This document shows positions 1-24,822 of a DNA stretch of 64,000 nucleotides, piece by piece. A model generated the notes under the pieces. It was not told the origin of the DNA and did no database searches. It saw only the letters and a program-made list of their open reading frames with translations. The stretch covers positions 124,001-188,000 of the forward strand of contig NW_026912148.1 of NCBI RefSeq assembly GCF_963662255.1. Direction: 5' to 3'. Both the position numbers and the translations under genes were made by a program. Position 1 is the stretch's first letter; each line of letters opens with the position of its first letter. Origin of the DNA: Cinclus cinclus (taxonomy: Eukaryota > Chordata > Aves > Passeriformes > Cinclidae).

Positions 1-175
1 TGCAGAGAGGCGGCAAAGCTGAATGCCGTGCCAGAGCTTCACTTCTCGCTGGAGCACAGGAAGGCAAGAATGAAGAGGCAGAACACAGTCTTGGTTTCAG
101 CAGCCTCCGGGACCGCAAAAGTTCAGCAATAGCTCTGTCAAAGCAGAACTCGGCTGAGAATGCTCTCGCAGCTTG

Positions 176-268
176 AGAAAGTTAGGCGCAGCTGTTGACC
201 AGCTCTGCCCGTGGCCACAGGCTGCTTCTTCGACCTTCACTGTGGCAGAGCTTTTGCGGAGCAGAGAC
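176..268. other. Variable segment of the unit (8 of 22 variant sites in 93 bp)
   Basis: Sites p176, p195, p198, p207, p211, p232, p261 and p268 fall here, against about 1.5 expected if sites were spread evenly. The neighbouring stretches p269-427, p429-582 and p603-731 show none. Coordinates are given for U1 and the pattern is summed over all units. The segment distinguishes classes b, d and y. Confidence 0.7.
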
Positions 269-315
269 GGCATTCTTCAAGGGCGTGTTCTCCAAGGTGC
301 TGTGAAACAGAGCCT

Positions 316-345
316 AGCACGCTGTCTCGCTGATCCTGGCTTTCG
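316..345 (+). repeat. Internal sub-repeat, partner of p780-801
   Basis: AGCACGCTG (316-324) and TCCTGGCTTTCG (334-345) occur again at 780-788 and 790-801, separated by 9 bases here and by 1 base there. This is the best internal similarity I found. The flanks do not match, so it may be a remnant of an old internal duplication or chance. The unit shows no obvious short-monomer ladder by eye. Confidence 0.4.
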
Positions 346-381
346 GCAAGCAGGCGTGCCAGACCGCCGACATTCTGCACT

Positions 382-400
382 CTGGCAGCCTAGTTGCCAG
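382..400. other. 6-bp inverted repeat, 7-nt spacer
   Basis: CTGGCA (382-387) and TGCCAG (395-400) are exact inverted repeats. They lie next to the 8-bp palindrome GCAGCTGC at 407-414, in the variant-free stretch p269-427. Confidence 0.55.
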
Positions 401-602
401 CTTTCGGCAGCTGCTGTCCTAGCAAGGCAGCTCAGGGAGTCAAAGCCAGTGCCGGGCGGCACCTTTCTGCTTTGCCCGCCTAAGCGGCGTCACGCTCCCT
501 CGGATACTGTGTCCTTTCCCTCTGCACTGCGTCTGCCGAGGTGCTCTCTGCCTCTCGGAGCAGAAGGGCAAAGGACAATGTTATCCACAGCAGGGTAGAA
601 AT

Positions 603-630
603 GGCATTGCTAGCAGGAAAGCTAGATGCC
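603..630. other. Bulged hairpin, repeated in every unit at p603-630
   Basis: GGCAT (603-607) pairs with ATGCC (626-630), and CTAGC (610-614) pairs with GCTAG (621-625). The two unpaired bases TG at 608-609 form a 5'-side bulge, and AGGAAA is the 6-nt loop. The ten base pairs carry no variable site in any unit. p602, just outside, is variable. Whether the strand ever folds this way is inference. Confidence 0.7.
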
Positions 631-681
631 TTGGAACTGTCCCCTTAGCCCTTGCCACTCACTTCAGGCTCGTACGCTGAG

Positions 682-701
682 CAGAACAGCCTGCTGTTCT
701 G
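682..701. other. Perfect 8-bp dyad with 4-nt spacer
   Basis: CAGAACAG (682-689) and CTGTTCTG (694-701) are exact inverted repeats around CCTG. A second, overlapping option pairs CTTCAG (662-667) with CTGAAG (699-704). The arms resemble a nuclear-receptor-type half-site palindrome (AGAACA...TGTTCT), but the 6-nt spacing between those half-sites differs from the 3-nt spacing of the glucocorticoid-receptor class, so I do not call it one. Confidence 0.7.
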
Positions 702-773
702 AAGCTTCGCTGGCTGCCGTTCGTGCCCAGACGCCATTTCCTTCCCAAGGAGGCGAAGCGCCGTCTACTTCTC

Positions 774-789
774 GCAGCGAGCACGCTGC
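774..789. other. 6-bp inverted repeat, 4-nt spacer
   Basis: GCAGCG (774-779) and CGCTGC (784-789) flank AGCA. An alternative pairing in the same place is GAGCA (779-783) with TGCTC (787-791). GCTCG/CGAGC follows at 817-829, making p770-830 dyad-rich and CpG-dense. Confidence 0.55.
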
Positions 790-1010
790 TCCTGGCTTTC
801 GCTTCTGCCGCAACGAGCTCGCTACGAGCACTTTTCTTCTCAACCCTCTAGACCATTGCGTTCTGCTTTTCTTGTCTCGTGAATGGAGACGGAAAGCTTC
901 TCGGCTACAATCTCGCCTAGAACAACTGCGGCTACACATTAAGCTCGCCCGGAACGCCCTGCTGAAACTTGCCTTCTGGCACCCCATTCGCGGGGCAGCC
1001 GTCTTTCTTC

Positions 1011-1029
1011 GGCCACCTGCCAAGTGGCC
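1011..1029. other. 6-bp inverted repeat, 7-nt spacer
   Basis: GGCCAC (1011-1016) and GTGGCC (1024-1029) are exact inverted repeats. The same hexamer pair, without spacer, forms the palindrome at p211-218. Confidence 0.55.
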
Positions 1030-1167
1030 CCATATCGCCGCGCTCGTTGCACTCCGCTTGTCAGATTGGCTTCCCGTGGCGCTGATTTCAGCCTGGCCAA
1101 ATACTAGCGCTGCGGAGAGCTGTCTCGCAGACAATCATGTTCCAGCATAGAAATTTGTCCTGCAATG

Positions 1168-1184
1168 TTCCCCCCTCTTTTCCC
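1168..1184. other. 17-nt polypyrimidine tract
   Basis: An unbroken run of C and T, including a run of six C, is followed by GCATGG. In the three y units (U21, U31, U36) G at p1185 becomes C and the run extends to 19 nt. It has no mirror symmetry strong enough to predict a stable triplex. Confidence 0.6.
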
Positions 1185-1322
1185 GCATGGTGTTGCTCTG
1201 ATGAATGCCTTGAGCATGGAACGACTTAAGCCAGCAAGTATTCCTCGCCGGCCACCGCTCGCTGTGCAAGAGGTATGCCGTGGAGCCTTTGAACGCTGCC
1301 AAGCAAAAAGCAGAGCAGTGAC

Positions 1323-1330
1323 CATAAAAG
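1323..1330 (+). promoter_or_regulatory. TATA-like motif CATAAAAG (weak candidate)
   Basis: CATAAAAG is a functional TATA-box variant in some vertebrate genes. It lies about 30 bp upstream of the bulged hairpin at p1351-1374, where a transcription start would be expected. It is unchanged in all units. One such motif per 1,379 bp is close to chance, and no initiator or downstream element is convincing, so this is only a place to look for satellite transcripts. Confidence 0.2.
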
Positions 1331-1350
1331 CGAGGAGAGAGCATGCACGA

Positions 1351-1374
1351 AGCACACTAGTTCTGTCTAGTGCT
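1351..1374. other. Bulged hairpin, repeated in every unit at p1351-1374
   Basis: CACTAG (1355-1360) pairs with CTAGTG (1367-1372) around the 6-nt loop TTCTGT. AG (1351-1352) pairs with CT (1373-1374) across a 2-nt 5'-side bulge, CA. The layout is the same as the hairpin at p603-630: a CTAG-containing inner stem, a 2-nt 5' bulge and a 6-nt loop. No variable site falls inside it. Confidence 0.7.
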
Positions 1375-1379
1375 TTCCG

Positions 1380-2758
1380 TGCAGAGAGGCGGCAAAGCTG
1401 AATGCCGTGCCAGAGCTTCACTTCTCGCTGGAGCACAGGAAGGCAAGAATGAAGAGGCAGAACACAGCCTTGGTTTCAGCAGCCTCCGGGACCGCAAAAG
1501 TTCAGCAATAGCTCTGTCAAAGCAGAACTCGGCTGAGAATGCTCTCGCAGCTTGGGAAAGTTAGGCGCAGCTGCTGACCAGCTCTGCCCGTGGCCACAGG
1601 CTGCTTCTTCCACCTTCACTGTGGCAGAGCTTTTGCGGAGCAGAGAGGGCATTCTTCAAGGGCGTGTTCTCCAAGGTGCTGTGAAACAGAGCCTAGCACG
1701 CTGTCTCGCTGATCCTGGCTTTCGGCAAGCAGGCGTGCCAGACCGCCGACATTCTGCACTCTGGCAGCCTAGTTGCCAGCTTTCGGCAGCTGCTGTCCTA
1801 GCAAGGAAGCTCAGGGAGTCAAAGCCAGTGCCGGGCGGCACCTTTCTGCTTTGCCCGCCTAAGCGGCGTCACGCTCCCTCGGATACTGTGTCCTTTCCCT
1901 CTGCACTGCGTCTGCCGAGGTGCTCTCTGCCTCTCGGAGCAGAAGGGCAAAGGACAATGTTATCCACAGCAGGGTAGAAATGGCATTGCTAGCAGGAAAG
2001 CTAGATGCCTTGGAACTGTCCCCTTAGCCCTTGCCACTCACTTCAGGCTCGTACGCTGAGCAGAACAGCCTGCTGTTCTGAAGCTTCGCTGGCTGCCGTT
2101 CGTGCCCAGACGCCATTTCCTTCCCAAGGAGGCGAAGCGCCGTCTACTTCTCGCAGCGAGCACGCTGCTCCTGGCTTTCGCTTCTGCCGCAACGAGCTCG
2201 CTACGAGCACTTTTCTTCTCAACCCTCTAGACCATTGCGTTCTGCTTTTCTTGTCTCGTGAATGGAGACGGAAAGCTTCTCGGCTACAATCTCGCCCAGA
2301 ACAACTGCGGCTACACATTAAGCTCGCCCGGAACGCCCTGCTGAAACTTGCCTTCTGGCACCCCATTCGCGGGGCAGCCGTCTTTCTTCGGCCACCTGCC
2401 AAGTGGCCCCATATCGCCGCGCTCGTTGCACTCCGCTTGTCAGATTGGCTTCCCGTGGCGCTGATTTCAGCCTGGCCAAATACTCGCGCTGCGGAGAGCT
2501 GTCTCGCAGACAATCATGTTCCAGCATAGAAATTTGTCCTGCAATGTTCCCCCCTCTTTTCCCGCATGGTGTTGCTCTGATGAATGCCTTGAGCATGGAA
2601 CGACTTAAGCCAGCAAGTATTCCTCGCCGGCCACCGCTCGCTGTGCAAGAGGTATGCCGTGGAGCCTTTGAACGCTGCCAAGCAAAAAGCAGAGCAGTGA
2701 CCATAAAAGCGAGGAGAGAGCATGCACGAAGCACACTAGTTCTGTCTAGTGCTTTCCG
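1380..2758. repeat. Unit U2, class b
   Basis: Departures: p195C p232C p268G p583A p602T p1106C. First of 12 units with C at p1106, which removes an in-frame stop on both strands. Confidence 0.97.
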
Positions 2759-4137
2759 TGCAGAGAGGCGGCAAAGCTGAATGCCGTGCCAGAGCTTCAC
2801 TTCTCGCTGGAGCACAGGAAGGCAAGAATGAAGAGGCAGAACACAGCCTTGGTTTCAGCAGCCTCCGGGACCGCAAAAGTTCAGCAATAGCTCTGTCAAA
2901 GCAGAACTCGGCTGAGAATGCTCTCGCAGCTTGGGAAAGTTAGGCGCAGCTGTTGACCAGCTCTGCCCGTGGCCACAGGCTGCTTCTTCGACCTTCACTG
3001 TGGCAGAGCTTTTGCGGAGCAGAGACGGCATTCTTCAAGGGCGTGTTCTCCAAGGTGCTGTGAAACAGAGCCTAGCACGCTGTCTCGCTGATCCTGGCTT
3101 TCGGCAAGCAGGCGTGCCAGACCGCCGACATTCTGCACTCTGGCAGCCTAGTTGCCAGCTTTCGGCAGCTGCTGTCCTAGCAAGGAAGCTCAGGGAGTCA
3201 AAGCCAGTGCCGGGCGGCACCTTTCTGCTTTGCCCGCCTAAGCGGCGTCACGCTCCCTCGGATACTGTGTCCTTTCCCTCTGCACTGCGTCTGCCGAGGT
3301 GCTCTCTGCCTCTCGGAGCAGAAGGGCAAAGGACAATGTTTTCCACAGCAGGGTAGAAACGGCATTGCTAGCAGGAAAGCTAGATGCCTTGGAACTGTCC
3401 CCTTAGCCCTTGCCACTCACTTCAGGCTCGTACGCTGAGCAGAACAGCCTGCTGTTCTGAAGCTTCGCTGGCTGCCGTTCGTGCCCAGACGCCATTTCCT
3501 TCCCAAGGAGGCGAAGCGCCGTCTACTTCTCGCAGCGAGCACGCTGCTCCTGGCTTTCGCTTCTGCCGCAACGAGCTCGCTACGAGCACTTTTCTTCTCA
3601 ACCCTCTAGACCATTGCGTTCTGCTTTTCTTGTCTCGTGAATGGAGACGGAAAGCTTCTCGGCTACAATCTCGCCCAGAACAACTGCGGCTACACATTAA
3701 GCTCGCCCGGGACGCCCTGCTGAAACTTGCCTTCTGGCACCCCATTCGCGGGGCAGCCGTCTTTCTTCGGCCACCTGCCAAGTGGCCCCATATCGCCGCG
3801 CTCGTTGCACTCCGCTTGTCAGATTGGCTTCCCGTGGCGCTGATTTCAGCCTGGCCAAATACTAGCGCTGCGGAGAGCTGTCTCGCAGACAATCATGTTC
3901 CAGCATAGAAATTTGTCCTGCAATGTTCCCCCCTCTTTTCCCGCATGGTGTTGCTCTGATGAATGCCTTGAGCATGGAACGACTTAAGCCAGCAAGTATT
4001 CCTCGCCGGCCACCGCTCGCTGTGCAAGAGGTATGCCGTGGAGCCTTTGAACGCTGCCAAGCAAAAAGCAGAGCAGTGACCATAAAAGCGAGGAGAGAGC
4101 ATGCACGAAGCACACTAGTTCTGTCTAGTGCTTTCCG
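2759..4137. repeat. Unit U3, class c
   Basis: Only departure: p953G. The same state recurs at U12, U18, U27, U28, U34 and U39. Confidence 0.97.
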
Positions 4138-5516
4138 TGCAGAGAGGCGGCAAAGCTGAATGCCGTGCCAGAGCTTCACTTCTCGCTGGAGCACAGGAAG
4201 GCAAGAATGAAGAGGCAGAACACAGCCTTGGTTTCAGCAGCCTCCGGGACCGCAAAAGTTCAGCAATAGCTCTGTCAAAGCAGAACTCGGCTGAGAATGC
4301 TCTCGCAGCTTGAGAAAGTTAGGCGCAGCTGTTGACCAGCTCTGCCCCTGGCCACAGGCTGCTTCTTCCACCTTCACTGTGGCAGAGCTTTTGCGGAGCA
4401 GAGAGGGCATTCTTCAAGGGCGTGTTCTCCAAGGTGCTGTGAAACAGAGCCTAGCACGCTGTCTCGCTGATCCTGGCTTTCGGCAAGCAGGCGTGCCAGA
4501 CCGCCGACATTCTGCACTCTGGCAGCCTAGTTGCCAGCTTTCGGCAGCTGCTGTCCTAGCAAGGAAGCTCAGGGAGTCAAAGCCAGTGCCGGGCGGCACC
4601 TTTCTGCTTTGCCCGCCTAAGCGGCGTCACGCTCCCTCGGATACTGTGTCCTTTCCCTCTGCACTGCGTCTGCCGAGGTGCTCTCTGCCTCTCGGAGCAG
4701 AAGGGCAAAGGACAATGTTTTCCACAGCAGGGTAGAAACGGCATTGCTAGCAGGAAAGCTAGATGCCTTGGAACTGTCCCCTTAGCCCTTGCCACTCACT
4801 TCAGGCTCGTACGCTGAGCAGAACAGCCTGCTGTTCTGAAGCTTCGCTGGCTGCCGTTCGTGCCCAGACGCCATTTCCTTCCCAAGGAGGCGAAGCGCCG
4901 TCTACTTCTCGCAGCGAGCACGCTGCTCCTGGCTTTCGCTTCTGCCGCAACGAGCTCGCTACGAGCACTTTTCTTCTCAACCCTCTAGACCATTGCGTTC
5001 TGCTTTTCTTGTCTCGTGAATGGAGACGGAAAGCTTCTCGGCTACAATCTCGCCCAGAACAACTGCGGCTACACATTAAGCTCGCCCGGAACGCCCTGCT
5101 GAAACTTGCCTTCTGGCACCCCATTCGCGGGGCAGCCGTCTTTCTTCGGCCACCTGCCAAGTGGCCCCATATCGCCGCGCTCGTTGCACTCCGCTTGTCA
5201 GATTGGCTTCCCGTGGCGCTGATTTCAGCCTGGCCAAATACTAGCGCTGCGGAGAGCTGTCTCGCAGACAATCATGTTCCAGCATAGAAATTTGTCCTGC
5301 AATGTTCCCCCCTCTTTTCCCGCATGGTGTTGCTCTGATGAATGCCTTGAGCATGGAACGACTTAAGCCAGCAAGTATTCCTCGCCGGCCACCGCTCGCT
5401 GTGCAAGAGGTATGCCGTGGAGCCTTTGAACGCTGCCAAGCAAAAAGCAGAGCAGTGACCATAAAAGCGAGGAGAGAGCATGCACGAAGCACACTAGTTC
5501 TGTCTAGTGCTTTCCG
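4138..5516. repeat. Unit U4, class d
   Basis: Departures: p176A p211C p232C p268G. The p211C change breaks the 8-bp palindrome GTGGCCAC at p211-218. Opens the first hexamer; identical to U13. Confidence 0.97.
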
Positions 5517-6895
5517 TGCAGAGAGGCGGCAAAGCTGAATGCCGTGCCAGAGCTTCACTTCTCGCTGGAGCACAGGAAGGCAAGAATGAAGAGGCAGAAC
5601 ACAGTCTTGGTTTCAGCAGCCTCCGGGACCGCAAAAGTTCAGCAATAGCTCTGTCAAAGCAGAACTCGGCTGAGAATGCTCTCGCAGCTTGAGAAAGTTA
5701 GGCGCAGCTGTTGACCAGCTCTGCCCGTGGCCACAGGCTGCTTCTTCGACCTTCACTGTGGCAGAGCTTTTGCGGAGCAGAGACGGCATTCTTCAAGGGC
5801 GTGTTCTCCAAGGTGCTGTGAAACAGAGCCTAGCACGCTGTCTCGCTGATCCTGGCTTTCGGCAAGCAGGCGTGCCAGACCGCCGACATTCTGCACTCTG
5901 GCAGCCTAGTTGCCAGCTTTCGGCAGCTGCTGTCCTAGCAAGGCAGCTCAGGGAGTCAAAGCCAGTGCCGGGCGGCACCTTTCTGCTTTGCCCGCCTAAG
6001 CGGCGTCACGCTCCCTCGGATACTGTGTCCTTTCCCTCTGCACTGCGTCTGCCGAGGTGCTCTCTGCCTCTCGGAGCAGAAGGGCAAAGGACAATGTTAT
6101 CCACAGCAGGGTAGAAATGGCATTGCTAGCAGGAAAGCTAGATGCCTTGGAACTGTCCCCTTAGCCCTTGCCACTCACTTCAGGCTCGTACGCTGAGCAG
6201 AACAGCCTGCTGTTCTGAAGCTTCGCTGGCTGCCGTTCGTGCCCAGACGCCATTTCCTTCCCAAGGAGGCGAAGCGCCGTCTACTTCTCGCAGCGAGCAC
6301 GCTGCTCCTGGCTTTCGCTTCTGCCGCAACGAGCTCGCTACGAGCACTTTTCTTCTCAACCCTCTAGACCATTGCGTTCTGCTTTTCTTGTCTCGTGAAT
6401 GGAGACGGAAAGCTTCTCGGCTACAATCTCGCCCAGAACAACTGCGGCTACACATTAAGCTCGCCCGGAACGCCCTGCTGAAACTTGCCTTCTGGCACCC
6501 CATTCGCGGGGCAGCCGTCTTTCTTCGGCCACCTGCCAAGTGGCCCCATATCGCCGCGCTCGTTGCACTCCGCTTGTCAGATTGGCTTCCCGTGGCGCTG
6601 ATTTCAGCCTGGCCAAATACTAGCGCTGCGGAGAGCTGTCTCGCAGACAATCATGTTCCAGCATAGAAATTTGTCCTGCAATGTTCCCCCCTCTTTTCCC
6701 GCATGGTGTTGCTCTGATGAATGCCTTGAGCATGGAACGACTTAAGCCAGCAAGTATTCCTCGCCGGCCACCGCTCGCTGTGCAAGAGGTATGCCGTGGA
6801 GCCTTTGAACGCTGCCAAGCAAAAAGCAGAGCAGTGACCATAAAAGCGAGGAGAGAGCATGCACGAAGCACACTAGTTCTGTCTAGTGCTTTCCG
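5517..6895. repeat. Unit U5, class a without p918T
   Basis: Departures: p89T p176A p428C p583A p602T. Its counterpart in the second 9-mer, U14, has p918T. Confidence 0.97.
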
Positions 6896-8274
6896 TGCAG
6901 AGAGGCGGCAAAGCTGAATGCCGTGCCAGAGCTTCACTTCTCGCTGGAGCACAGGAAGGCAAGAATGAAGAGGCAGAACACAGCCTTGGTTTCAGCAGCC
7001 TCCGGGACCGCAAAAGTTCAGCAATAGCTCTGTCAAAGCAGAACTCGGCTGAGAATGCTCTCGCAGCTTGGGAAAGTTAGGCGCAGCTGTTGACCAGCTC
7101 TGCCCGTGGCCACAGGCTGCTTCTTCGACCTTCACTGTGGCAGAGCTTTTGCGGAGCAGAGACGGCATTCTTCAAGGGCGTGTTCTCCAAGGTGCTGTGA
7201 AACAGAGCCTAGCACGCTGTCTCGCTGATCCTGGCTTTCGGCAAGCAGGCGTGCCAGACCGCCGACATTCTGCACTCTGGCAGCCTAGTTGCCAGCTTTC
7301 GGCAGCTGCTGTCCTAGCAAGGAAGCTCAGGGAGTCAAAGCCAGTGCCGGGCGGCACCTTTCTGCTTTGCCCGCCTAAGCGGCGTCACGCTCCCTCGGAT
7401 ACTGTGTCCTTTCCCTCTGCACTGCGTCTGCCGAGGTGCTCTCTGCCTCTCGGAGCAGAAGGGCAAAGGACAATGTTTTCCACAGCAGGGTAGAAACGGC
7501 ATTGCTAGCAGGAAAGCTAGATGCCTTGGAACTGTCCCCTTAGCCCTTGCCACTCACTTCAGGCTCGTACGCTGAGCAGAACAGCCTGCTGTTCTGAAGC
7601 TTCGCTGGCTGCCGTTCGTGCCCAGACGCCATTTCCTTCCCAAGGAGGCGAAGCGCCGTCTACTTCTCGCAGCGAGCACGCTGCTCCTGGCTTTCGCTTC
7701 TGCCGCAACGAGCTCGCTACGAGCACTTTTCTTCTCAACCCTCTAGACCATTGCGTTCTGCTTTTCTTGTCTCGTGAATGGAGACGGAAAGCTTCTCGGC
7801 TACAATCTCGCCCAGAACAACTGCGGCTACACATTAAGCTCGCCCGGAACGCCCTGCTGAAACTTGCCTTCTGGCACCCCATTCGCGGGGCAGCCGTCTT
7901 TCTTCGGCCACCTGCCAAGTGGCCCCATATCGCCGCGCTCGTTGCACTCCGCTTGTCAGATTGGCTTCCCGTGGCGCTGATTTCAGCCTGGCCAAATACT
8001 AGCGCTGCGGAGAGCTGTCTCGCAGACAATCATGTTCCAGCATAGAAATTTGTCCTGCAATGTTCCCCCCTCTTTTCCCGCATGGTGTTGCTCTGATGAA
8101 TGCCTTGAGCATGGAACGACTTAAGCCAGCAAGTATTCCTCGCCGGCCACCGCTCGCTGTGCAAGAGGTATGCCGTGGAGCCTTTGAACGCTGCCAAGCA
8201 AAAAGCAGAGCAGTGACCATAAAAGCGAGGAGAGAGCATGCACGAAGCACACTAGTTCTGTCTAGTGCTTTCCG
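6896..8274. repeat. Unit U6, class c0 (matches majority at all sites)
   Basis: No departure from the majority base, so with U9 and U29 it can serve as the array consensus. Confidence 0.97.
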
Positions 8275-9653
8275 TGCAGAGAGGCGGCAAAGCTGAATGC
8301 CGTGCCAGAGCTTCACTTCTCGCTGGAGCACAGGAAGGCAAGAATGAAGAGGCAGAACACAGTCTTGGTTTCAGCAGCCTCCGGGACCGCAAAAGTTCAG
8401 CAATAGCTCTGTCAAAGCAGAACTCGGCTGAGAATGCTCTCGCAGCTTGAGAAAGTTAGGCGCAGCTGTTGACCAGCTCTGCCCGTGGCCACAGGCTGCT
8501 TCTTCGACCTTCACTGTGGCAGAGCTTTTGCGGAGCAGAGACGGCATTCTTCAAGGGCGTGTTCTCCAAGGTGCTGTGAAACAGAGCCTAGCACGCTGTC
8601 TCGCTGATCCTGGCTTTCGGCAAGCAGGCGTGCCAGACCGCCGACATTCTGCACTCTGGCAGCCTAGTTGCCAGCTTTCGGCAGCTGCTGTCCTAGCAAG
8701 GCAGCTCAGGGAGTCAAAGCCAGTGCCGGGCGGCACCTTTCTGCTTTGCCCGCCTAAGCGGCGTCACGCTCCCTCGGATACTGTGTCCTTTCCCTCTGCA
8801 CTGCGTCTGCCGAGGTGCTCTCTGCCTCTCGGAGCAGAAGGGCAAAGGACAATGTTATCCACAGCAGGGTAGAAATGGCATTGCTAGCAGGAAAGCTAGA
8901 TGCCTTGGAACTGTCCCCTTAGCCCTTGCCACTCACTTCAGGCTCGTACGCTGAGCAGAACAGCCTGCTGTTCTGAAGCTTCGCTGGCTGCCGTTCGTGC
9001 CCAGACGCCATTTCCTTCCCAAGGAGGCGAAGCGCCGTCTACTTCTCGCAGCGAGCACGCTGCTCCTGGCTTTCGCTTCTGCCGCAACGAGCTCGCTACG
9101 AGCACTTTTCTTCTCAACCCTCTAGACCATTGCGTTCTGCTTTTCTTGTCTCGTGAATGGAGACGGAAAGCTTCTCGGCTACAATCTCGCCTAGAACAAC
9201 TGCGGCTACACATTAAGCTCGCCCGGAACGCCCTGCTGAAACTTGCCTTCTGGCACCCCATTCGCGGGGCAGCCGTCTTTCTTCGGCCACCTGCCAAGTG
9301 GCCCCATATCGCCGCGCTCGTTGCACTCCGCTTGTCAGATTGGCTTCCCGTGGCGCTGATTTCAGCCTGGCCAAATACTAGCGCTGCGGAGAGCTGTCTC
9401 GCAGACAATCATGTTCCAGCATAGAAATTTGTCCTGCAATGTTCCCCCCTCTTTTCCCGCATGGTGTTGCTCTGATGAATGCCTTGAGCATGGAACGACT
9501 TAAGCCAGCAAGTATTCCTCGCCGGCCACCGCTCGCTGTGCAAGAGGTATGCCGTGGAGCCTTTGAACGCTGCCAAGCAAAAAGCAGAGCAGTGACCATA
9601 AAAGCGAGGAGAGAGCATGCACGAAGCACACTAGTTCTGTCTAGTGCTTTCCG
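8275..9653. repeat. Unit U7, class a
   Basis: Same six departures as U1. Confidence 0.97.
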
Positions 9654-11032
9654 TGCAGAGAGGCGGCAAAGCTGAATGCCGTGCCAGAGCTTCACTTCTC
9701 GCTGGAGCACAGGAAGGCAAGAATGAAGAGGCAGAACACAGCCTTGGTTTCAGCAGCCTCCGGGACCGCAAAAGTTCAGCAATAGCTCTGTCAAAGCAGA
9801 ACTCGGCTGAGAATGCTCTCGCAGCTTGGGAAAGTTAGGCGCAGCTGCTGACCAGCTCTGCCCGTGGCCACAGGCTGCTTCTTCCACCTTCACTGTGGCA
9901 GAGCTTTTGCGGAACAGAGACGGCATTCTTCAAGGGCGTGTTCTCCAAGGTGCTGTGAAACAGAGCCTAGCACGCTGTCTCGCTGATCCTGGCTTTCGGC
10001 AAGCAGGCGTGCCAGACCGCCGACATTCTGCACTCTGGCAGCCTAGTTGCCAGCTTTCGGCAGCTGCTGTCCTAGCAAGGAAGCTCAGGGAGTCAAAGCC
10101 AGTGCCGGGCGGCACCTTTCTGCTTTGCCCGCCTAAGCGGCGTCACGCTCCCTCGGATACTGTGTCCTTTCCCTCTGCACTGCGTCTGCCGAGGTGCTCT
10201 CTGCCTCTCGGAGCAGAAGGGCAAAGGACAATGTTATCCACAGCAGGGTAGAAATGGCATTGCTAGCAGGAAAGCTAGATGCCTTGGAACTGTCCCCTTA
10301 GCCCTTGCCACTCACTTCAGGCTCGTACGCTGAGCAGAACAGCCTGCTGTTCTGAAGCTTCGCTGGCTGCCGTTCGTGCCCAGACGCCATTTCCTTCCCA
10401 AGGAGGCGAAGCGTCGTCTACTTCTCGCAGCGAGCACGCTGCTCCTGGCTTTCGCTTCTGCCGCAACGAGCTCGCTACGAGCACTTTTCTTCTCAACCCT
10501 CTAGACCATTGCGTTCTGCTTTTCTTGTCTCGTGAATGGAGACGGAAAGCTTCTCGGCTACAATCTCGCCCAGAACAACTGCGGCTACACATTAAGCTCG
10601 CCCGGAACGCCCTGCTGAAACTTGCCTTCTGGCACCCCATTCGCGGGGCAGCCGTCTTTCTTCGGCCACCTGCCAAGTGGCCCCATATCGCCGCGCTCGT
10701 TGCACTCCGCTTGTCAGATTGGCTTCCCGTGGTGCTGATTTCAGCCTGGCCAAATACTCGCGCTGCGGAGAGCTGTCTCGCAGACAATCATGTTCCAGCA
10801 TAGAAATTTGTCCTGCAATGTTCCCCCCTCTTTTCCCGCATGGTGTTGCTCTGATGAATGCCTTGAGCATGGAACGACTTAAGCCAGCAAGTATTCCTCG
10901 CCGGCCACCGCTCGCTGTGCAAGAGGTATGCCGTGGAGCCTTTGAACGCTGCCAAGCAAAAAGCAGAGCAGTGACCATAAAAGCGAGGAGAGAGCATGCA
11001 CGAAGCACACTAGTTCTGTCTAGTGCTTTCCG
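9654..11032. repeat. Unit U8, class b with private base
   Basis: Departures: p195C p232C p261A p583A p602T p761T p1080T p1106C. The p1080T base (10733) is found nowhere else in the window and looks like a recent CpG-to-TpG transition. p261A is otherwise a y marker. Confidence 0.97.
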
Positions 11033-15169: not shown

Positions 15170-16548
15170 TGCAGAGAGGCGGCAAAGCTGAATGCCGTGC
15201 CAGAGCTTCACTTCTCGCTGGAGCACAGGAAGGCAAGAATGAAGAGGCAGAACACAGCCTTGGTTTCAGCAGCCTCCGGGACCGCAAAAGTTCAGCAATA
15301 GCTCTGTCAAAGCAGAACTCGGCTGAGAATGCTCTCGCAGCTTGGGAAAGTTAGGCGCAGCTGTTGACCAGCTCTGCCCGTGGCCACAGGCTGCTTCTTC
15401 GACCTTCACTGTGGCAGAGCTTTTGCGGAGCAGAGACGGCATTCTTCAAGGGCGTGTTCTCCAAGGTGCTGTGAAACAGAGCCTAGCACGCTGTCTCGCT
15501 GATCCTGGCTTTCGGCAAGCAGGCGTGCCAGACCGCCGACATTCTGCACTCTGGCAGCCTAGTTGCCAGCTTTCGGCAGCTGCTGTCCTAGCAAGGAAGC
15601 TCAGGGAGTCAAAGCCAGTGCCGGGCGGCACCTTTCTGCTTTGCCCGCCTAAGCGGCGTCACGCTCCCTCGGATACTGTGTCCTTTCCCTCTGCACTGCG
15701 TCTGCCGAGGTGCTCTCTGCCTCTCGGAGCAGAAGGGCAAAGGACAATGTTTTCCACAGCAGGGTAGAAACGGCATTGCTAGCAGGAAAGCTAGATGCCT
15801 TGGAACTGTCCCCTTAGCCCTTGCCACTCACTTCAGGCTCGTACGCTGAGCAGAACAGCCTGCTGTTCTGAAGCTTCGCTGGCTGCCGTTCGTGCCCAGA
15901 CGCCATTTCCTTCCCAAGGAGGCGAAGCGCCGTCTACTTCTCGCAGCGAGCACGCTGCTCCTGGCTTTCGCTTCTGCCGCAACGAGCTCGCTACGAGCAC
16001 TTTTCTTCTCAACCCTCTAGACCATTGCGTTCTGCTTTTCTTGTCTCGTGAATGGAGACGGAAAGCTTCTCGGCTACAATCTCGCCCAGAACAACTGCGG
16101 CTACACATTAAGCTCGCCCGGGACGCCCTGCTGAAACTTGCCTTCTGGCACCCCATTCGCGGGGCAGCCGTCTTTCTTCGGCCACCTGCCAAGTGGCCCC
16201 ATATCGCCGCGCTCGTTGCACTCCGCTTGTCAGATTGGCTTCCCGTGGCGCTGATTTCAGCCTGGCCAAATACTAGCGCTGCGGAGAGCTGTCTCGCAGA
16301 CAATCATGTTCCAGCATAGAAATTTGTCCTGCAATGTTCCCCCCTCTTTTCCCGCATGGTGTTGCTCTGATGAATGCCTTGAGCATGGAACGACTTAAGC
16401 CAGCAAGTATTCCTCGCCGGCCACCGCTCGCTGTGCAAGAGGTATGCCGTGGAGCCTTTGAACGCTGCCAAGCAAAAAGCAGAGCAGTGACCATAAAAGC
16501 GAGGAGAGAGCATGCACGAAGCACACTAGTTCTGTCTAGTGCTTTCCG
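15170..16548. repeat. Unit U12, class c
   Basis: Departure p953G only; matches U3. Confidence 0.97.
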
Positions 16549-17927
16549 TGCAGAGAGGCGGCAAAGCTGAATGCCGTGCCAGAGCTTCACTTCTCGCTGG
16601 AGCACAGGAAGGCAAGAATGAAGAGGCAGAACACAGCCTTGGTTTCAGCAGCCTCCGGGACCGCAAAAGTTCAGCAATAGCTCTGTCAAAGCAGAACTCG
16701 GCTGAGAATGCTCTCGCAGCTTGAGAAAGTTAGGCGCAGCTGTTGACCAGCTCTGCCCCTGGCCACAGGCTGCTTCTTCCACCTTCACTGTGGCAGAGCT
16801 TTTGCGGAGCAGAGAGGGCATTCTTCAAGGGCGTGTTCTCCAAGGTGCTGTGAAACAGAGCCTAGCACGCTGTCTCGCTGATCCTGGCTTTCGGCAAGCA
16901 GGCGTGCCAGACCGCCGACATTCTGCACTCTGGCAGCCTAGTTGCCAGCTTTCGGCAGCTGCTGTCCTAGCAAGGAAGCTCAGGGAGTCAAAGCCAGTGC
17001 CGGGCGGCACCTTTCTGCTTTGCCCGCCTAAGCGGCGTCACGCTCCCTCGGATACTGTGTCCTTTCCCTCTGCACTGCGTCTGCCGAGGTGCTCTCTGCC
17101 TCTCGGAGCAGAAGGGCAAAGGACAATGTTTTCCACAGCAGGGTAGAAACGGCATTGCTAGCAGGAAAGCTAGATGCCTTGGAACTGTCCCCTTAGCCCT
17201 TGCCACTCACTTCAGGCTCGTACGCTGAGCAGAACAGCCTGCTGTTCTGAAGCTTCGCTGGCTGCCGTTCGTGCCCAGACGCCATTTCCTTCCCAAGGAG
17301 GCGAAGCGCCGTCTACTTCTCGCAGCGAGCACGCTGCTCCTGGCTTTCGCTTCTGCCGCAACGAGCTCGCTACGAGCACTTTTCTTCTCAACCCTCTAGA
17401 CCATTGCGTTCTGCTTTTCTTGTCTCGTGAATGGAGACGGAAAGCTTCTCGGCTACAATCTCGCCCAGAACAACTGCGGCTACACATTAAGCTCGCCCGG
17501 AACGCCCTGCTGAAACTTGCCTTCTGGCACCCCATTCGCGGGGCAGCCGTCTTTCTTCGGCCACCTGCCAAGTGGCCCCATATCGCCGCGCTCGTTGCAC
17601 TCCGCTTGTCAGATTGGCTTCCCGTGGCGCTGATTTCAGCCTGGCCAAATACTAGCGCTGCGGAGAGCTGTCTCGCAGACAATCATGTTCCAGCATAGAA
17701 ATTTGTCCTGCAATGTTCCCCCCTCTTTTCCCGCATGGTGTTGCTCTGATGAATGCCTTGAGCATGGAACGACTTAAGCCAGCAAGTATTCCTCGCCGGC
17801 CACCGCTCGCTGTGCAAGAGGTATGCCGTGGAGCCTTTGAACGCTGCCAAGCAAAAAGCAGAGCAGTGACCATAAAAGCGAGGAGAGAGCATGCACGAAG
17901 CACACTAGTTCTGTCTAGTGCTTTCCG
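16549..17927. repeat. Unit U13, class d
   Basis: Departures p176A p211C p232C p268G; matches U4. Confidence 0.97.
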
Positions 17928-19306
17928 TGCAGAGAGGCGGCAAAGCTGAATGCCGTGCCAGAGCTTCACTTCTCGCTGGAGCACAGGAAGGCAAGAATGA
18001 AGAGGCAGAACACAGTCTTGGTTTCAGCAGCCTCCGGGACCGCAAAAGTTCAGCAATAGCTCTGTCAAAGCAGAACTCGGCTGAGAATGCTCTCGCAGCT
18101 TGAGAAAGTTAGGCGCAGCTGTTGACCAGCTCTGCCCGTGGCCACAGGCTGCTTCTTCGACCTTCACTGTGGCAGAGCTTTTGCGGAGCAGAGACGGCAT
18201 TCTTCAAGGGCGTGTTCTCCAAGGTGCTGTGAAACAGAGCCTAGCACGCTGTCTCGCTGATCCTGGCTTTCGGCAAGCAGGCGTGCCAGACCGCCGACAT
18301 TCTGCACTCTGGCAGCCTAGTTGCCAGCTTTCGGCAGCTGCTGTCCTAGCAAGGCAGCTCAGGGAGTCAAAGCCAGTGCCGGGCGGCACCTTTCTGCTTT
18401 GCCCGCCTAAGCGGCGTCACGCTCCCTCGGATACTGTGTCCTTTCCCTCTGCACTGCGTCTGCCGAGGTGCTCTCTGCCTCTCGGAGCAGAAGGGCAAAG
18501 GACAATGTTATCCACAGCAGGGTAGAAATGGCATTGCTAGCAGGAAAGCTAGATGCCTTGGAACTGTCCCCTTAGCCCTTGCCACTCACTTCAGGCTCGT
18601 ACGCTGAGCAGAACAGCCTGCTGTTCTGAAGCTTCGCTGGCTGCCGTTCGTGCCCAGACGCCATTTCCTTCCCAAGGAGGCGAAGCGCCGTCTACTTCTC
18701 GCAGCGAGCACGCTGCTCCTGGCTTTCGCTTCTGCCGCAACGAGCTCGCTACGAGCACTTTTCTTCTCAACCCTCTAGACCATTGCGTTCTGCTTTTCTT
18801 GTCTCGTGAATGGAGACGGAAAGCTTCTCGGCTACAATCTCGCCTAGAACAACTGCGGCTACACATTAAGCTCGCCCGGAACGCCCTGCTGAAACTTGCC
18901 TTCTGGCACCCCATTCGCGGGGCAGCCGTCTTTCTTCGGCCACCTGCCAAGTGGCCCCATATCGCCGCGCTCGTTGCACTCCGCTTGTCAGATTGGCTTC
19001 CCGTGGCGCTGATTTCAGCCTGGCCAAATACTAGCGCTGCGGAGAGCTGTCTCGCAGACAATCATGTTCCAGCATAGAAATTTGTCCTGCAATGTTCCCC
19101 CCTCTTTTCCCGCATGGTGTTGCTCTGATGAATGCCTTGAGCATGGAACGACTTAAGCCAGCAAGTATTCCTCGCCGGCCACCGCTCGCTGTGCAAGAGG
19201 TATGCCGTGGAGCCTTTGAACGCTGCCAAGCAAAAAGCAGAGCAGTGACCATAAAAGCGAGGAGAGAGCATGCACGAAGCACACTAGTTCTGTCTAGTGC
19301 TTTCCG
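17928..19306. repeat. Unit U14, class a
   Basis: Six class-a departures, including p918T. Confidence 0.97.
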
Positions 19307-20685
19307 TGCAGAGAGGCGGCAAAGCTGAATGCCGTGCCAGAGCTTCACTTCTCGCTGGAGCACAGGAAGGCAAGAATGAAGAGGCAGAACACAGCCTTGG
19401 TTTCAGCAGCCTCCGGGACCGCAAAAGTTCAGCAATAGCTCTGTCAAAGCAGAACTCGGCTGAGAATGCTCTCGCAGCTTGGGAAAGTTAGGCGCAGCTG
19501 TTGACCAGCTCTGCCCGTGGCCACAGGCTGCTTCTTCCACCTTCACTGTGGCAGAGCTTTTGCGGAGCAGAGACGGCATTCTTCAAGGGCGTGTTCTCCA
19601 AGGTGCTGTGAAACAGAGCCTAGCACGCTGTCTCGCTGATCCTGGCTTTCGGCAAGCAGGCGTGCCAGACCGCCGACATTCTGCACTCTGGCAGCCTAGT
19701 TGCCAGCTTTCGGCAGCTGCTGTCCTAGCAAGGAAGCTCAGGGAGTCAAAGCCAGTGCCGGGCGGCACCTTTCTGCTTTGCCCGCCTAAGCGGCGTCACG
19801 CTCCCTCGGATACTGTGTCCTTTCCCTCTGCACTGCGTCTGCCGAGGTGCTCTCTGCCTCTCGGAGCAGAAGGGCAAAGGACAATGTTTTCCACAGCAGG
19901 GTAGAAACGGCATTGCTAGCAGGAAAGCTAGATGCCTTGGAACTGTCCCCTTAGCCCTTGCCACTCACTTCAGGCTCGTACGCTGAGCAGAACAGCCTGC
20001 TGTTCTGAAGCTTCGCTGGCTGCCGTTCGTGCCCAGACGCCATTTCCTTCCCAAGGAGGCGAAGCGCCGTCTACTTCTCGCAGCGAGCACGCTGCTCCTG
20101 GCTTTCGCTTCTGCCGCAACGAGCTCGCTACGAGCACTTTTCTTCTCAACCCTCTAGACCATTGCGTTCTGCTTTTCTTGTCTCGTGAATGGAGACGGAA
20201 AGCTTCTCGGCTACAATCTCGCCCAGAACAACTGCGGCTACACATTAAGCTCGCCCGGGACGCCCTGCTGAAACTTGCCTTCTGGCACCCCATTCGCGGG
20301 GCAGCCGTCTTTCTTCGGCCACCTGCCAAGTGGCCCCATATCGCCGCGCTCGTTGCACTCCGCTTGTCAGATTGGCTTCCCGTGGCGCTGATTTCAGCCT
20401 GGCCAAATACTAGCGCTGCGGAGAGCTGTCTCGCAGACAATCATGTTCCAGCATAGAAATTTGTCCTGCAATGTTCCCCCCTCTTTTCCCGCATGGTGTT
20501 GCTCTGATGAATGCCTTGAGCATGGAACGACTTAAGCCAGCAAGTATTCCTCGCCGGCCACCGCTCGCTGTGCAAGAGGTATGCCGTGGAGCCTTTGAAC
20601 GCTGCCAAGCAAAAAGCAGAGCAGTGACCATAAAAGCGAGGAGAGAGCATGCACGAAGCACACTAGTTCTGTCTAGTGCTTTCCG
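19307..20685. repeat. Unit U15, class c with p232C
   Basis: Departures p232C p953G. The only unit combining these two. Confidence 0.97.
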
Positions 20686-22064
20686 TGCAGAGAGGCGGCA
20701 AAGCTGAATGCCGTGCCAGAGCTTCACTTCTCGCTGGAGCACAGGAAGGCAAGAATGAAGAGGCAGAACACAGTCTTGGTTTCAGCAGCCTCCGGGACCG
20801 CAAAAGTTCAGCAATAGCTCTGTCAAAGCAGAACTCGGCTGAGAATGCTCTCGCAGCTTGAGAAAGTTAGGCGCAGCTGTTGACCAGCTCTGCCCGTGGC
20901 CACAGGCTGCTTCTTCGACCTTCACTGTGGCAGAGCTTTTGCGGAGCAGAGACGGCATTCTTCAAGGGCGTGTTCTCCAAGGTGCTGTGAAACAGAGCCT
21001 AGCACGCTGTCTCGCTGATCCTGGCTTTCGGCAAGCAGGCGTGCCAGACCGCCGACATTCTGCACTCTGGCAGCCTAGTTGCCAGCTTTCGGCAGCTGCT
21101 GTCCTAGCAAGGCAGCTCAGGGAGTCAAAGCCAGTGCCGGGCGGCACCTTTCTGCTTTGCCCGCCTAAGCGGCGTCACGCTCCCTCGGATACTGTGTCCT
21201 TTCCCTCTGCACTGCGTCTGCCGAGGTGCTCTCTGCCTCTCGGAGCAGAAGGGCAAAGGACAATGTTATCCACAGCAGGGTAGAAATGGCATTGCTAGCA
21301 GGAAAGCTAGATGCCTTGGAACTGTCCCCTTAGCCCTTGCCACTCACTTCAGGCTCGTACGCTGAGCAGAACAGCCTGCTGTTCTGAAGCTTCGCTGGCT
21401 GCCGTTCGTGCCCAGACGCCATTTCCTTCCCAAGGAGGCGAAGCGCCGTCTACTTCTCGCAGCGAGCACGCTGCTCCTGGCTTTCGCTTCTGCCGCAACG
21501 AGCTCGCTACGAGCACTTTTCTTCTCAACCCTCTAGACCATTGCGTTCTGCTTTTCTTGTCTCGTGAATGGAGACGGAAAGCTTCTCGGCTACAATCTCG
21601 CCTAGAACAACTGCGGCTACACATTAAGCTCGCCCGGAACGCCCTGCTGAAACTTGCCTTCTGGCACCCCATTCGCGGGGCAGCCGTCTTTCTTCGGCCA
21701 CCTGCCAAGTGGCCCCATATCGCCGCGCTCGTTGCACTCCGCTTGTCAGATTGGCTTCCCGTGGCGCTGATTTCAGCCTGGCCAAATACTAGCGCTGCGG
21801 AGAGCTGTCTCGCAGACAATCATGTTCCAGCATAGAAATTTGTCCTGCAATGTTCCCCCCTCTTTTCCCGCATGGTGTTGCTCTGATGAATGCCTTGAGC
21901 ATGGAACGACTTAAGCCAGCAAGTATTCCTCGCCGGCCACCGCTCGCTGTGCAAGAGGTATGCCGTGGACCCTTTGAACGCTGCCAAGCAAAAAGCAGAG
22001 CAGTGACCATAAAAGCGAGGAGAGAGCATGCACGAAGCACACTAGTTCTGTCTAGTGCTTTCCG
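20686..22064. repeat. Unit U16, class a with p1285C
   Basis: Class-a departures plus p1285C (21970). First appearance of p1285C, which then recurs in U19, U22, U24, U25, U32 and U44 on different backgrounds. Confidence 0.97.
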
Positions 22065-23443
22065 TGCAGAGAGGCGGCAAAGCTGAATGCCGTGCCAGAG
22101 CTTCACTTCTCGCTGGAGCACAGGAAGGCAAGAATGAAGAGGCAGAACACAGCCTTGGTTTCAGCAGCCTCCGGGACCGCAAAAGTTCAGCAATAGCTCT
22201 GTCAAAGCAGAACTCGGCTGAGAATGCTCTCGCAGCTTGGGAAAGTTAGGCGCAGCTGCTGACCAGCTCTGCCCGTGGCCACAGGCTGCTTCTTCCACCT
22301 TCACTGTGGCAGAGCTTTTGCGGAGCAGAGAGGGCATTCTTCAAGGGCGTGTTCTCCAAGGTGCTGTGAAACAGAGCCTAGCACGCTGTCTCGCTGATCC
22401 TGGCTTTCGGCAAGCAGGCGTGCCAGACCGCCGACATTCTGCACTCTGGCAGCCTAGTTGCCAGCTTTCGGCAGCTGCTGTCCTAGCAAGGAAGCTCAGG
22501 GAGTCAAAGCCAGTGCCGGGCGGCACCTTTCTGCTTTGCCCGCCTAAGCGGCGTCACGCTCCCTCGGATACTGTGTCCTTTCCCTCTGCACTGCGTCTGC
22601 CGAGGTGCTCTCTGCCTCTCGGAGCAGAAGGGCAAAGGACAATGTTATCCACAGCAGGGTAGAAATGGCATTGCTAGCAGGAAAGCTAGATGCCTTGGAA
22701 CTGTCCCCTTAGCCCTTGCCACTCACTTCAGGCTCGTACGCTGAGCAGAACAGCCTGCTGTTCTGAAGCTTCGCTGGCTGCCGTTCGTGCCCAGACGCCA
22801 TTTCCTTCCCAAGGAGGCGAAGCGTCGTCTACTTCTCGCAGCGAGCACGCTGCTCCTGGCTTTCGCTTCTGCCGCAACGAGCTCGCTACGAGCACTTTTC
22901 TTCTCAACCCTCTAGACCATTGCGTTCTGCTTTTCTTGTCTCGTGAATGGAGACGGAAAGCTTCTCGGCTACAATCTCGCCCAGAACAACTGCGGCTACA
23001 CATTAAGCTCGCCCGGAACGCCCTGCTGAAACTTGCCTTCTGGCACCCCATTCGCGGGGCAGCCGTCTTTCTTCGGCCACCTGCCAAGTGGCCCCATATC
23101 GCCGCGCTCGTTGCACTCCGCTTGTCAGATTGGCTTCCCGTGGCGCTGATTTCAGCCTGGCCAAATACTCGCGCTGCGGAGAGCTGTCTCGCAGACAATC
23201 ATGTTCCAGCATAGAAATTTGTCCTGCAATGTTCCCCCCTCTTTTCCCGCATGGTGTTGCTCTGATGAATGCCTTGAGCATGGAACGACTTAAGCCAGCA
23301 AGTATTCCTCGCCGGCCACCGCTCGCTGTGCAAGAGGTATGCCGTGGAGCCTTTGAACGCTGCCAAGCAAAAAGCAGAGCAGTGACCATAAAAGCGAGGA
23401 GAGAGCATGCACGAAGCACACTAGTTCTGTCTAGTGCTTTCCG
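22065..23443. repeat. Unit U17, class b
   Basis: Departures p195C p232C p268G p583A p602T p761T p1106C. Carries both the p268G of U2 and the p761T of U8. Confidence 0.97.
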
Positions 23444-24822
23444 TGCAGAGAGGCGGCAAAGCTGAATGCCGTGCCAGAGCTTCACTTCTCGCTGGAGCAC
23501 AGGAAGGCAAGAATGAAGAGGCAGAACACAGCCTTGGTTTCAGCAGCCTCCGGGACCGCAAAAGTTCAGCAATAGCTCTGTCAAAGCAGAACTCGGCTGA
23601 GAATGCTCTCGCAGCTTGGGAAAGTTAGGCGCAGCTGTTGACCAGCTCTGCCCGTGGCCACAGGCTGCTTCTTCGACCTTCACTGTGGCAGAGCTTTTGC
23701 GGAGCAGAGACGGCATTCTTCAAGGGCGTGTTCTCCAAGGTGCTGTGAAACAGAGCCTAGCACGCTGTCTCGCTGATCCTGGCTTTCGGCAAGCAGGCGT
23801 GCCAGACCGCCGACATTCTGCACTCTGGCAGCCTAGTTGCCAGCTTTCGGCAGCTGCTGTCCTAGCAAGGAAGCTCAGGGAGTCAAAGCCAGTGCCGGGC
23901 GGCACCTTTCTGCTTTGCCCGCCTAAGCGGCGTCACGCTCCCTCGGATACTGTGTCCTTTCCCTCTGCACTGCGTCTGCCGAGGTGCTCTCTGCCTCTCG
24001 GAGCAGAAGGGCAAAGGACAATGTTTTCCACAGCAGGGTAGAAACGGCATTGCTAGCAGGAAAGCTAGATGCCTTGGAACTGTCCCCTTAGCCCTTGCCA
24101 CTCACTTCAGGCTCGTACGCTGAGCAGAACAGCCTGCTGTTCTGAAGCTTCGCTGGCTGCCGTTCGTGCCCAGACGCCATTTCCTTCCCAAGGAGGCGAA
24201 GCGCCGTCTACTTCTCGCAGCGAGCACGCTGCTCCTGGCTTTCGCTTCTGCCGCAACGAGCTCGCTACGAGCACTTTTCTTCTCAACCCTCTAGACCATT
24301 GCGTTCTGCTTTTCTTGTCTCGTGAATGGAGACGGAAAGCTTCTCGGCTACAATCTCGCCCAGAACAACTGCGGCTACACATTAAGCTCGCCCGGGACGC
24401 CCTGCTGAAACTTGCCTTCTGGCACCCCATTCGCGGGGCAGCCGTCTTTCTTCGGCCACCTGCCAAGTGGCCCCATATCGCCGCGCTCGTTGCACTCCGC
24501 TTGTCAGATTGGCTTCCCGTGGCGCTGATTTCAGCCTGGCCAAATACTAGCGCTGCGGAGAGCTGTCTCGCAGACAATCATGTTCCAGCATAGAAATTTG
24601 TCCTGCAATGTTCCCCCCTCTTTTCCCGCATGGTGTTGCTCTGATGAATGCCTTGAGCATGGAACGACTTAAGCCAGCAAGTATTCCTCGCCGGCCACCG
24701 CTCGCTGTGCAAGAGGTATGCCGTGGAGCCTTTGAACGCTGCCAAGCAAAAAGCAGAGCAGTGACCATAAAAGCGAGGAGAGAGCATGCACGAAGCACAC
24801 TAGTTCTGTCTAGTGCTTTCCG
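23444..24822. repeat. Unit U18, class c
   Basis: Departure p953G only. Closes the second 9-mer. Confidence 0.97.

What the first reader, a model, noticed from the sequence alone, without database searches (positions are those of the whole stretch)
1..24822. Nine-unit (12,411-bp) higher-order repeat made of a trimer plus a hexamer
U1-U9 and U10-U18 share the class order a-b-c-d-a-c-a-b-c with 9 differences that I could find in 12.4 kb (about 0.07%), while adjacent units differ by up to about 0.9%. Nested periodicity (1,379, 4,137 and 12,411 bp) in a unit this long is unusual. HORs are best known for short monomers such as the 171-bp alpha satellite.
Basis: seen in the sequence. Interest (0 to 1): 0.75.

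Follow-up and report, generated by a model that had tools for sequence, protein, structure and literature searches.

The report
Mosaic 1,379-bp satellite DNA array
The whole stretch is one apparently non-coding repeat of exactly 1,379 bases copied head to tail, and a nine-copy block in it was recently doubled; this is a clear but fairly ordinary example of how satellite DNA grows.

Summary
All 64,000 bases are one tandem array: 46 whole units of exactly 1,379 bp plus 566 bp, no indels. U1-U9 and U10-U18 differ at exactly 9 of 12,411 positions. Among the first 18 units, distance 9 averages 1.00 difference per unit pair, against 6.18, 7.10 and 7.38 at distances 7, 8 and 10; none of 20,000 permutations was as low.

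The nonamer occurs twice in the window, is cut by the window's left edge, and breaks down in U19. Distance 9 carries no signal in U19-U46 (p 0.75), where 10- and 5-unit spacings appear. The nested trimer is not supported (distance 3, p 0.17), and the hexamer rests on three unit pairs. Over the window distance 15 is at least as strong as 9.

Best reading: a satellite that evolves by duplication and deletion of multi-unit blocks plus sub-unit exchange. Simulated blocks with a mean of 9 units give such a 9-unit repeat in over half of runs. Kilobase-monomer HORs are known in human DNA. Organism unknown; no relative found.

The parts
1..64000 (.). tandem array filling the window: 46 full units of exactly 1,379 bp plus 566 bp of unit 47; neither end of the array is visible
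1..12411 (.). first copy of the nonamer block (U1-U9, class order ABCDACABC); left end is the window's edge
12412..24822 (.). second copy of the nonamer block (U10-U18); 9 differences from the first copy in 12,411 bp
23444..33096 (.). U18-U24, first copy of a 7-unit block repeated 10 units further on with 9 differences (at most 3 per unit pair)
37234..46886 (.). U28-U34, second copy of that 7-unit block; it holds the second copy of the longest exact repeat of the window (4,099 bp, first copy 26434-30532, 10 units away)
41371..48265 (.). U31-U35, first copy of a head-to-tail pentamer block (class order EABCD)
48266..55160 (.). U36-U40, second copy of the pentamer block; 6 differences in 6,895 bp
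35855..38612 (.). U27 and U28, identical neighbouring units of class C: sign of a single-unit duplication (a 2,604-bp exact repeat at lag 1,379 starts at 35582)

Best explanation
This is an array of apparently non-coding satellite DNA, most likely from a eukaryotic chromosome, with a 1,379-bp GC-rich monomer. It grows and shrinks by out-of-register exchange (or replication-based duplication) of blocks of several whole units, and it is homogenised by shorter sub-unit exchanges. The nonamer pair U1-9 / U10-18 is the largest block duplication in view; the pentamer pair U31-35 / U36-40 is another; the 10-unit spacing of U18-24 and U28-34 is a third. After each duplication the copies diverged mainly by swapping alleles already present in the array, not by new mutation. 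The apparent nesting comes from a class order (A then B then C; E then A) that block copying preserves and deletions interrupt. Shown: block identities, class order (largely carried by the recent copies), within-unit mosaicism, sufficiency of block duplication in a simple model. Inferred: eukaryotic host, the molecular mechanism (unequal sister exchange or break-induced replication), and lack of a sequence-specific function for the nonamer.
For: Exact 1,379-bp register over 46 units and only 22 variable sites, each with two alleles. Block pairs of at least 3 units with at most 2 differences per unit pair: 10, against 2.58 in 1,000 permutations (p 0.004); in U19-46 alone 4 against 0.52 (p 0.002). 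Eight of the 9 differences between the nonamer copies lie at sites that also vary elsewhere in the array, binomial 2.6e-14 if differences fell at random. Four gametes at 57 of 190 pairs of informative sites, at least 5 exchange intervals inside the unit (Rmin 5), and linkage falling from r2 0.18-0.21 below 150 bp to about 0.06 near 1 kb (alleles seen fewer than 4 times were left out of the linkage table). Neighbours differ more than average (6.78 vs 5.85; 99.9% of permutations are lower or equal); in the simulation one-unit duplication never gives that ratio (0 of 200 runs; mean ratio 0.17), while blocks with a mean of 9 units give it in 17.5% and 16.0% of 200 runs each (arrays of 60 and 150 units) and a 9-unit repeat with at most 9 differences in 53% and 62%. 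The longest open frame is within the range of shuffles; no Rfam or tRNA match; no relatives at E 0.001 for three ORFs.
Against: Host and chromosomal place are unknown: no genome is held and the searches found no relative, so 'satellite' rests on structure alone. With so few differences (5.85 per unit pair) class calls are soft: the successor test, once U10-18, U31-34 and U36-40 are left out, is p 0.012, 0.018, 0.071, 0.24 and 0.51 for 4, 5, 6, 7 and 8 classes. At the strictest setting (at most 1 difference per pair) the number of block pairs is not above permutation (2 vs 0.77, p 0.18), though the longest is (5 units, p 0.010). The 9-block statistic does not by itself separate the simulated models: one-unit duplication also reaches it in 53% of runs, through runs of like neighbours. 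The neighbour ratio of 1.16 is in the upper tail even for mean blocks of 9. Sub-unit conversion was not in the simulation.
Confidence: 0.72

Rival explanations
1. A regular nonamer HOR array that lies mostly to the left of the window; the window shows only its last two copies and its edge.
For: The first copy starts at the window's edge, so further copies to the left cannot be excluded; the period breaks in U19 as at an array border (U19 vs U10: 5 differences).
Against: Only two copies are seen; the last 28 of 46 units show no distance-9 signal (p 0.75). Nothing outside the window could be read.
Confidence: 0.15
2. Assembly or polishing artefact: an assembler went twice round a repeat graph, or polishing swapped alleles between near-identical units, so that the block order is partly false.
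For: Units differ by 0.42% on average (5.85 of 1,379), so paths through the array are easy to confuse; 8 of 9 differences are swaps of known alleles, which mis-phased polishing would also make; only 2 of 22 variable sites are singletons.
Against: A graph loop walked twice would give identical copies, not 9 spread differences; there is no indel, hence no homopolymer-length error; block spacings differ (9, 10, 5 and 1 units) rather than reflecting one read length; the allele spectrum is near neutral (Tajima's D 0.55).
Confidence: 0.15
3. A tandem gene array: each unit carries an unrecognised gene (a short protein or a non-coding RNA) and homogenisation keeps it in step.
For: Unit length is exactly constant; a 174-codon open frame exists on the + strand (unit positions 626-1150) and a 156-codon one on the - strand.
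Against: The longest frame is reached by 32% of 500 dinucleotide shuffles; no Pfam family at its cut-off in the 8 frames scanned (of 16 ORFs of at least 60 aa listed for U1-U2), only three weak sub-threshold matches; no Rfam match up to E 1 in the three units scanned; no tRNA; no relatives of three frames in about 5.8 billion proteins by a word-based search. Spliced genes with short exons are not excluded.
Confidence: 0.08
4. Rolling-circle copying: a nine-unit extrachromosomal circle was cut from the array, copied and reinserted, giving two perfect-register nonamers in one step.
For: Whole-unit, head-to-tail, in-register copies are what such a circle gives (general knowledge); the copies are only 0.073% apart.
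Against: Unequal exchange makes the same product, and block duplication is enough in the simulation; no feature seen in the window tells the two apart.
Confidence: 0.1

Closest known systems
Human NBPF 3mer HOR (Olduvai triplets), PMC9584774 (passages seen)
   Same: HOR built of kilobase monomers (about 1.6 kb; 3mer about 4.77 kb), head-to-tail
   Different: NBPF monomers carry exons and, in the NBPF20 array, differ by about 18% within a HOR and copies by about 1.6%; here units differ by 0.42% on average and no exon is seen; no sequence comparison was run
Human LTR-derived arrays on 13q11, 18p11 and 21q11 with a HOR of six 3.5-kb monomers, PMC2588610 (passages seen)
   Same: long monomer, HOR, and irregular copies explained by unequal crossing over that removes whole monomers
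   Different: monomers there are made of retrotransposon pieces and marked by an insertion; here no indel separates any two units; no sequence comparison was run
Arabidopsis CEN178 HORs as defined by TRASH, PMC10199239 (passages seen)
   Same: HORs are pairs of blocks with matching order, found without fixed monomer classes or one fixed period
   Different: 178-bp centromeric monomer against 1,379 bp here; a centromeric role is not testable here
Alpha-satellite HORs (171-bp monomer), PMC8122249 and PMC2588610 (passages seen)
   Same: block amplification makes units within a block more different from each other than units one period apart
   Different: distinct monomer classes and large arrays; here shallow classes, two copies, and a period that changes along the array

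Membership tests
Satellite DNA | long head-to-tail array of near-identical units | tested here: met
   46.4 units over 64 kb, no indels
Satellite DNA | non-coding unit | tested here: met
   longest frame within shuffles, no Pfam at cut-off in 8 frames, no Rfam, no tRNA; spliced genes with short exons not excluded
Satellite DNA | eukaryotic heterochromatin, centromere or telomere location | not testable with these tools
   no genome held, array ends not in the window
Higher-order repeat (TRASH definition: pair of blocks of at least 3 monomers, similar position by position) | block pairs beyond chance | tested here: met
   longest pair 9 units at distance 9 with at most 3 differences per unit pair, p 0.002 in 1,000 permutations; the number of pairs is above permutation for limits of 2, 3 and 5 differences (p 0.004, 0.003, 0.024), not for 1 (p 0.18)
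Higher-order repeat (classical alpha-satellite type: many tandem copies of one multimer) | several consecutive copies with one period | tested here: inconclusive
   two copies in the window, left edge open; no distance-9 signal in U19-46
Nested HOR of trimer plus hexamer | identity peaks at distances 3 and 6 inside the nonamer | tested here: not met
   distance 3: p 0.38 in U1-9, p 0.17 in U1-18; distance 6: p 0.006 in U1-9 on three pairs, p 0.008 in U1-18 on twelve pairs that are not independent of the nonamer
Trans-splicing leader RNA gene array | spliced-leader sequence in the unit | tested here: not met
   full dinoflagellate and kinetoplastid leaders (recalled) absent at up to 5 mismatches; the 15-base dinoflagellate core only with 5 mismatches on the - strand; an 8-base Euglena-type core with 1 mismatch, which chance explains; no Rfam match

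The most novel reading that the evidence does not exclude
A GC-rich satellite, not found in the collections searched, whose 1,379-bp length is locked (no indel in 46 units) and whose HOR register switches along one array from 9 to 10 to 5 units, so that one 64-kb stretch records several successive block duplications and may mark a functional site (such as a centromere) in an unidentified eukaryote.
Probability: 0.15. Interest if true: 0.5.

Novelty: new member of a known kind. Interest (0 to 1): 0.27.

Why it matters
It is a clean natural record of satellite turnover: low divergence and no indels let block duplications at spacings of 9, 10, 5 and 1 units, and the sub-unit swaps that followed, be read directly. 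Neighbours that differ more than average argue, in the model used here, against one-unit slippage as the main process. It does not by itself open a new kind of system.

Tried and rejected
Gene array: rejected on shuffles and family searches; one search listed 38 stop-to-stop frames of at least 35 codons around unit 6, which were not scanned further. Three protein searches gave 181, 107 and 89 word-sharing candidates and no hit at E 0.001. Structured RNA or tRNA units: none. Spliced-leader, telomere and CENP-B-like motifs: nothing convincing; the telomere strings matched only with 4-5 mismatches and the CENP-B box with 2. Sub-repeats inside the unit, including the seven-nucleosome idea (1,379 = 7 x 197): lag 197 matches at 0.249, the average being 0.255; the best internal direct repeat scores 16 against a mean of 12.7 and a maximum of 18 in 60 shuffles. 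Phage, plasmid, viral-contig and bacterial or archaeal relatives: none with one 1,500-bp query in each of phages and plasmids, two exact patterns in each of viral and genome contigs, and one protein query in viral contigs, where 5 stretches matched a pattern and none was confirmed. Exact patterns miss diverged relatives. Bacterial promoter and terminator scan of U6-U7: 2 promoter-like sites (one per unit; 0.5 expected) and 4 terminator-like sites (3.6 expected), not informative. A dinoflagellate host was my first guess from recalled composition; nothing tests it and I do not claim it. Rows dropped before a count: the successor test was repeated without U10-18, U31-34 and U36-40; linkage used only alleles seen at least 4 times. 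Literature: (satellite DNA with 1379 bp) gave no paper; (HOR, satellite, dinoflagellate) one listing, off topic; (tandem repeat, dinoflagellate) 3 listings, not read; some searches were seen as listings, and from them passages only of PMC9584774, PMC2588610, PMC10199239 and PMC8122249 were read. No whole paper was read.

Full report
What is there. The window is a single head-to-tail array. Of all lags from 50 to 29,999, self-matching is at least 99.5% at 1,379 and its 20 multiples, and the best other lag reaches 29.6%. Cut at 1,379 there are 46 full units and 566 bp; all units line up without gaps, 22 positions vary, each with two alleles, and 20 of the 22 vary in at least two units. The mean difference between two units is 5.85 positions, 0.42%. 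The 566-bp rest differs from the majority sequence at one known variable site and at no new one.

U1-9 against U10-18: 9 differences in 12,411 bp. Six-class clustering gives ABCDACABC twice. Distance 9 in the first 18 units averages 1.00 against 5.64 expected; none of 20,000 permutations was as low (p about 5e-5). Distances 7, 8 and 10 average 6.18, 7.10 and 7.38.

Where the interpretation goes too far. The period of 3 is not significant in U1-18 (4.93, p 0.17) or in U1-9 (5.50, p 0.38); the period of 6 in U1-9 (p 0.006) rests on three pairs with 0, 4 and 1 differences, and in U1-18 (3.58, p 0.008) it is not independent of the nonamer. From U19 on distance 9 is no better than chance (6.21, p 0.75), while distances 15 (4.00, p 0.002) and 10 (4.89, p 0.03) are better and distance 5 is borderline (5.13, p 0.052). 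Over the whole window distance 15 (4.45, 31 pairs, p 0.0007) is slightly better than distance 9 (4.62, 37 pairs, p 0.0013). I read 15 as 9 plus 6 in the first part and 10 plus 5 in the second, so one number has two origins; that is inference. These p values are not corrected for the number of distances tried.

Block structure over the window. With at most 3 differences per unit pair the four longest block pairs are U1-9 / U10-18 (9 differences), U18-24 / U28-34 (9), U20-24 / U35-39 (7) and U31-35 / U36-40 (6); 15 pairs in all against 6.26 in permutations (p 0.003). With at most 2 differences 10 pairs of three or more units are found against 2.58 in 1,000 permutations (p 0.004), covering 36 of 46 units. 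With at most 1 difference the number is not above chance (2 vs 0.77, p 0.18) but the longest block is (5 units, p 0.010). With at most 5 differences, TRASH's default limit, 45 pairs against 34.08 (p 0.024). In the six-class string B is followed by C in 9 of 9 cases, E by A in 3 of 3, and A by B in 7 of 10. After leaving out U10-18, U31-34 and U36-40 the order remains significant for 4 and 5 classes (p 0.012, 0.018) and not for 6, 7 or 8 (0.071, 0.24, 0.51), so much of the order is carried by the recent block copies.

How it changes. Eight of the 9 nonamer differences are at sites that vary elsewhere, which new mutation would hardly do (binomial 2.6e-14). Within units, 57 of 190 pairs of informative sites show all four allele combinations, Rmin is 5, and linkage decays over roughly a kilobase. 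So blocks of whole units are copied and pieces smaller than a unit are swapped afterwards. Mis-phased polishing could imitate the second step; I cannot exclude it without reads. The allele spectrum is close to neutral (Tajima's D 0.55), a figure that treats units as independent, which they are not.

Is block copying enough? With one-unit steps neighbours are nearly alike (ratio 0.17 to the mean) and 0 of 200 runs reach the observed 1.16; with mean 2, 0 of 200; with mean 4, 3.5% (array of 60) and 3.0% (array of 150); with mean 9, 17.5% and 16.0%. A 9-unit repeat with at most 9 differences occurs in 53% and 62% of runs with mean 9, in 32% with mean 4 (both array sizes), in 28% with mean 2, and also in 53% with one-unit steps, there, as I read it, through runs of like neighbours (66% of neighbours identical). 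So the nonamer pair alone is unsurprising, and it is the dissimilar neighbours that point to multi-unit steps.

What the unit is. GC 57%; the longest open frame (174 codons) is matched by 32% of 500 dinucleotide shuffles; no Pfam match reaches its cut-off in 8 frames, no Rfam match up to E 1 in the first three units, no tRNA in the window, no internal direct or inverted repeat beyond the shuffle maximum. No relative was found in phages, plasmids, viral contigs, or bacterial and archaeal contigs with the few queries used, nor in the protein collection with three frames, and no genome is held for the window. I infer a eukaryotic satellite; organism and chromosomal place are open.

Comparison. 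Kilobase-monomer HORs are in print: NBPF triplets of about 1.6-kb monomers (PMC9584774, passages) and human LTR arrays with six 3.5-kb monomers per HOR, with whole-monomer deletions put down to unequal crossing over (PMC2588610, passages). A review also mentions a 5.9-kb potato repeat made of two 3-kb monomers and recounts Smith's simulations of unequal crossover (PMC8122249, passages). Under the TRASH definition (PMC10199239, passages) the nonamer is an HOR. The finding is therefore a new member of a known kind, well observed and over-interpreted in its nesting.

Noticed in passing
window 1-64000: No insertion or deletion separates any of the 46 units although 22 substitution sites segregate; I did not test whether length is under constraint.
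   Followed up: no
window 35582-38185: 2,604-bp exact repeat at lag 1,379 (U27 and U28 identical): the longest exact match between neighbouring units, as after a single-unit duplication.
   Followed up: partly
window 56540-57918 (U42): U42 joins the left alleles of class E to right alleles like those of U38 (class B), as an exchange point within a unit would leave.
   Followed up: partly
unit positions 1-300: 10 of the 22 variable sites fall in the first 300 bp of the unit; deviation from uniform is not significant (KS p 0.083).
   Followed up: yes
unit (any): Strong dinucleotide bias: AG/CT 1.48 and GC 1.49 in excess, TA 0.44 and AT 0.55 scarce; may help to name the host.
   Followed up: no
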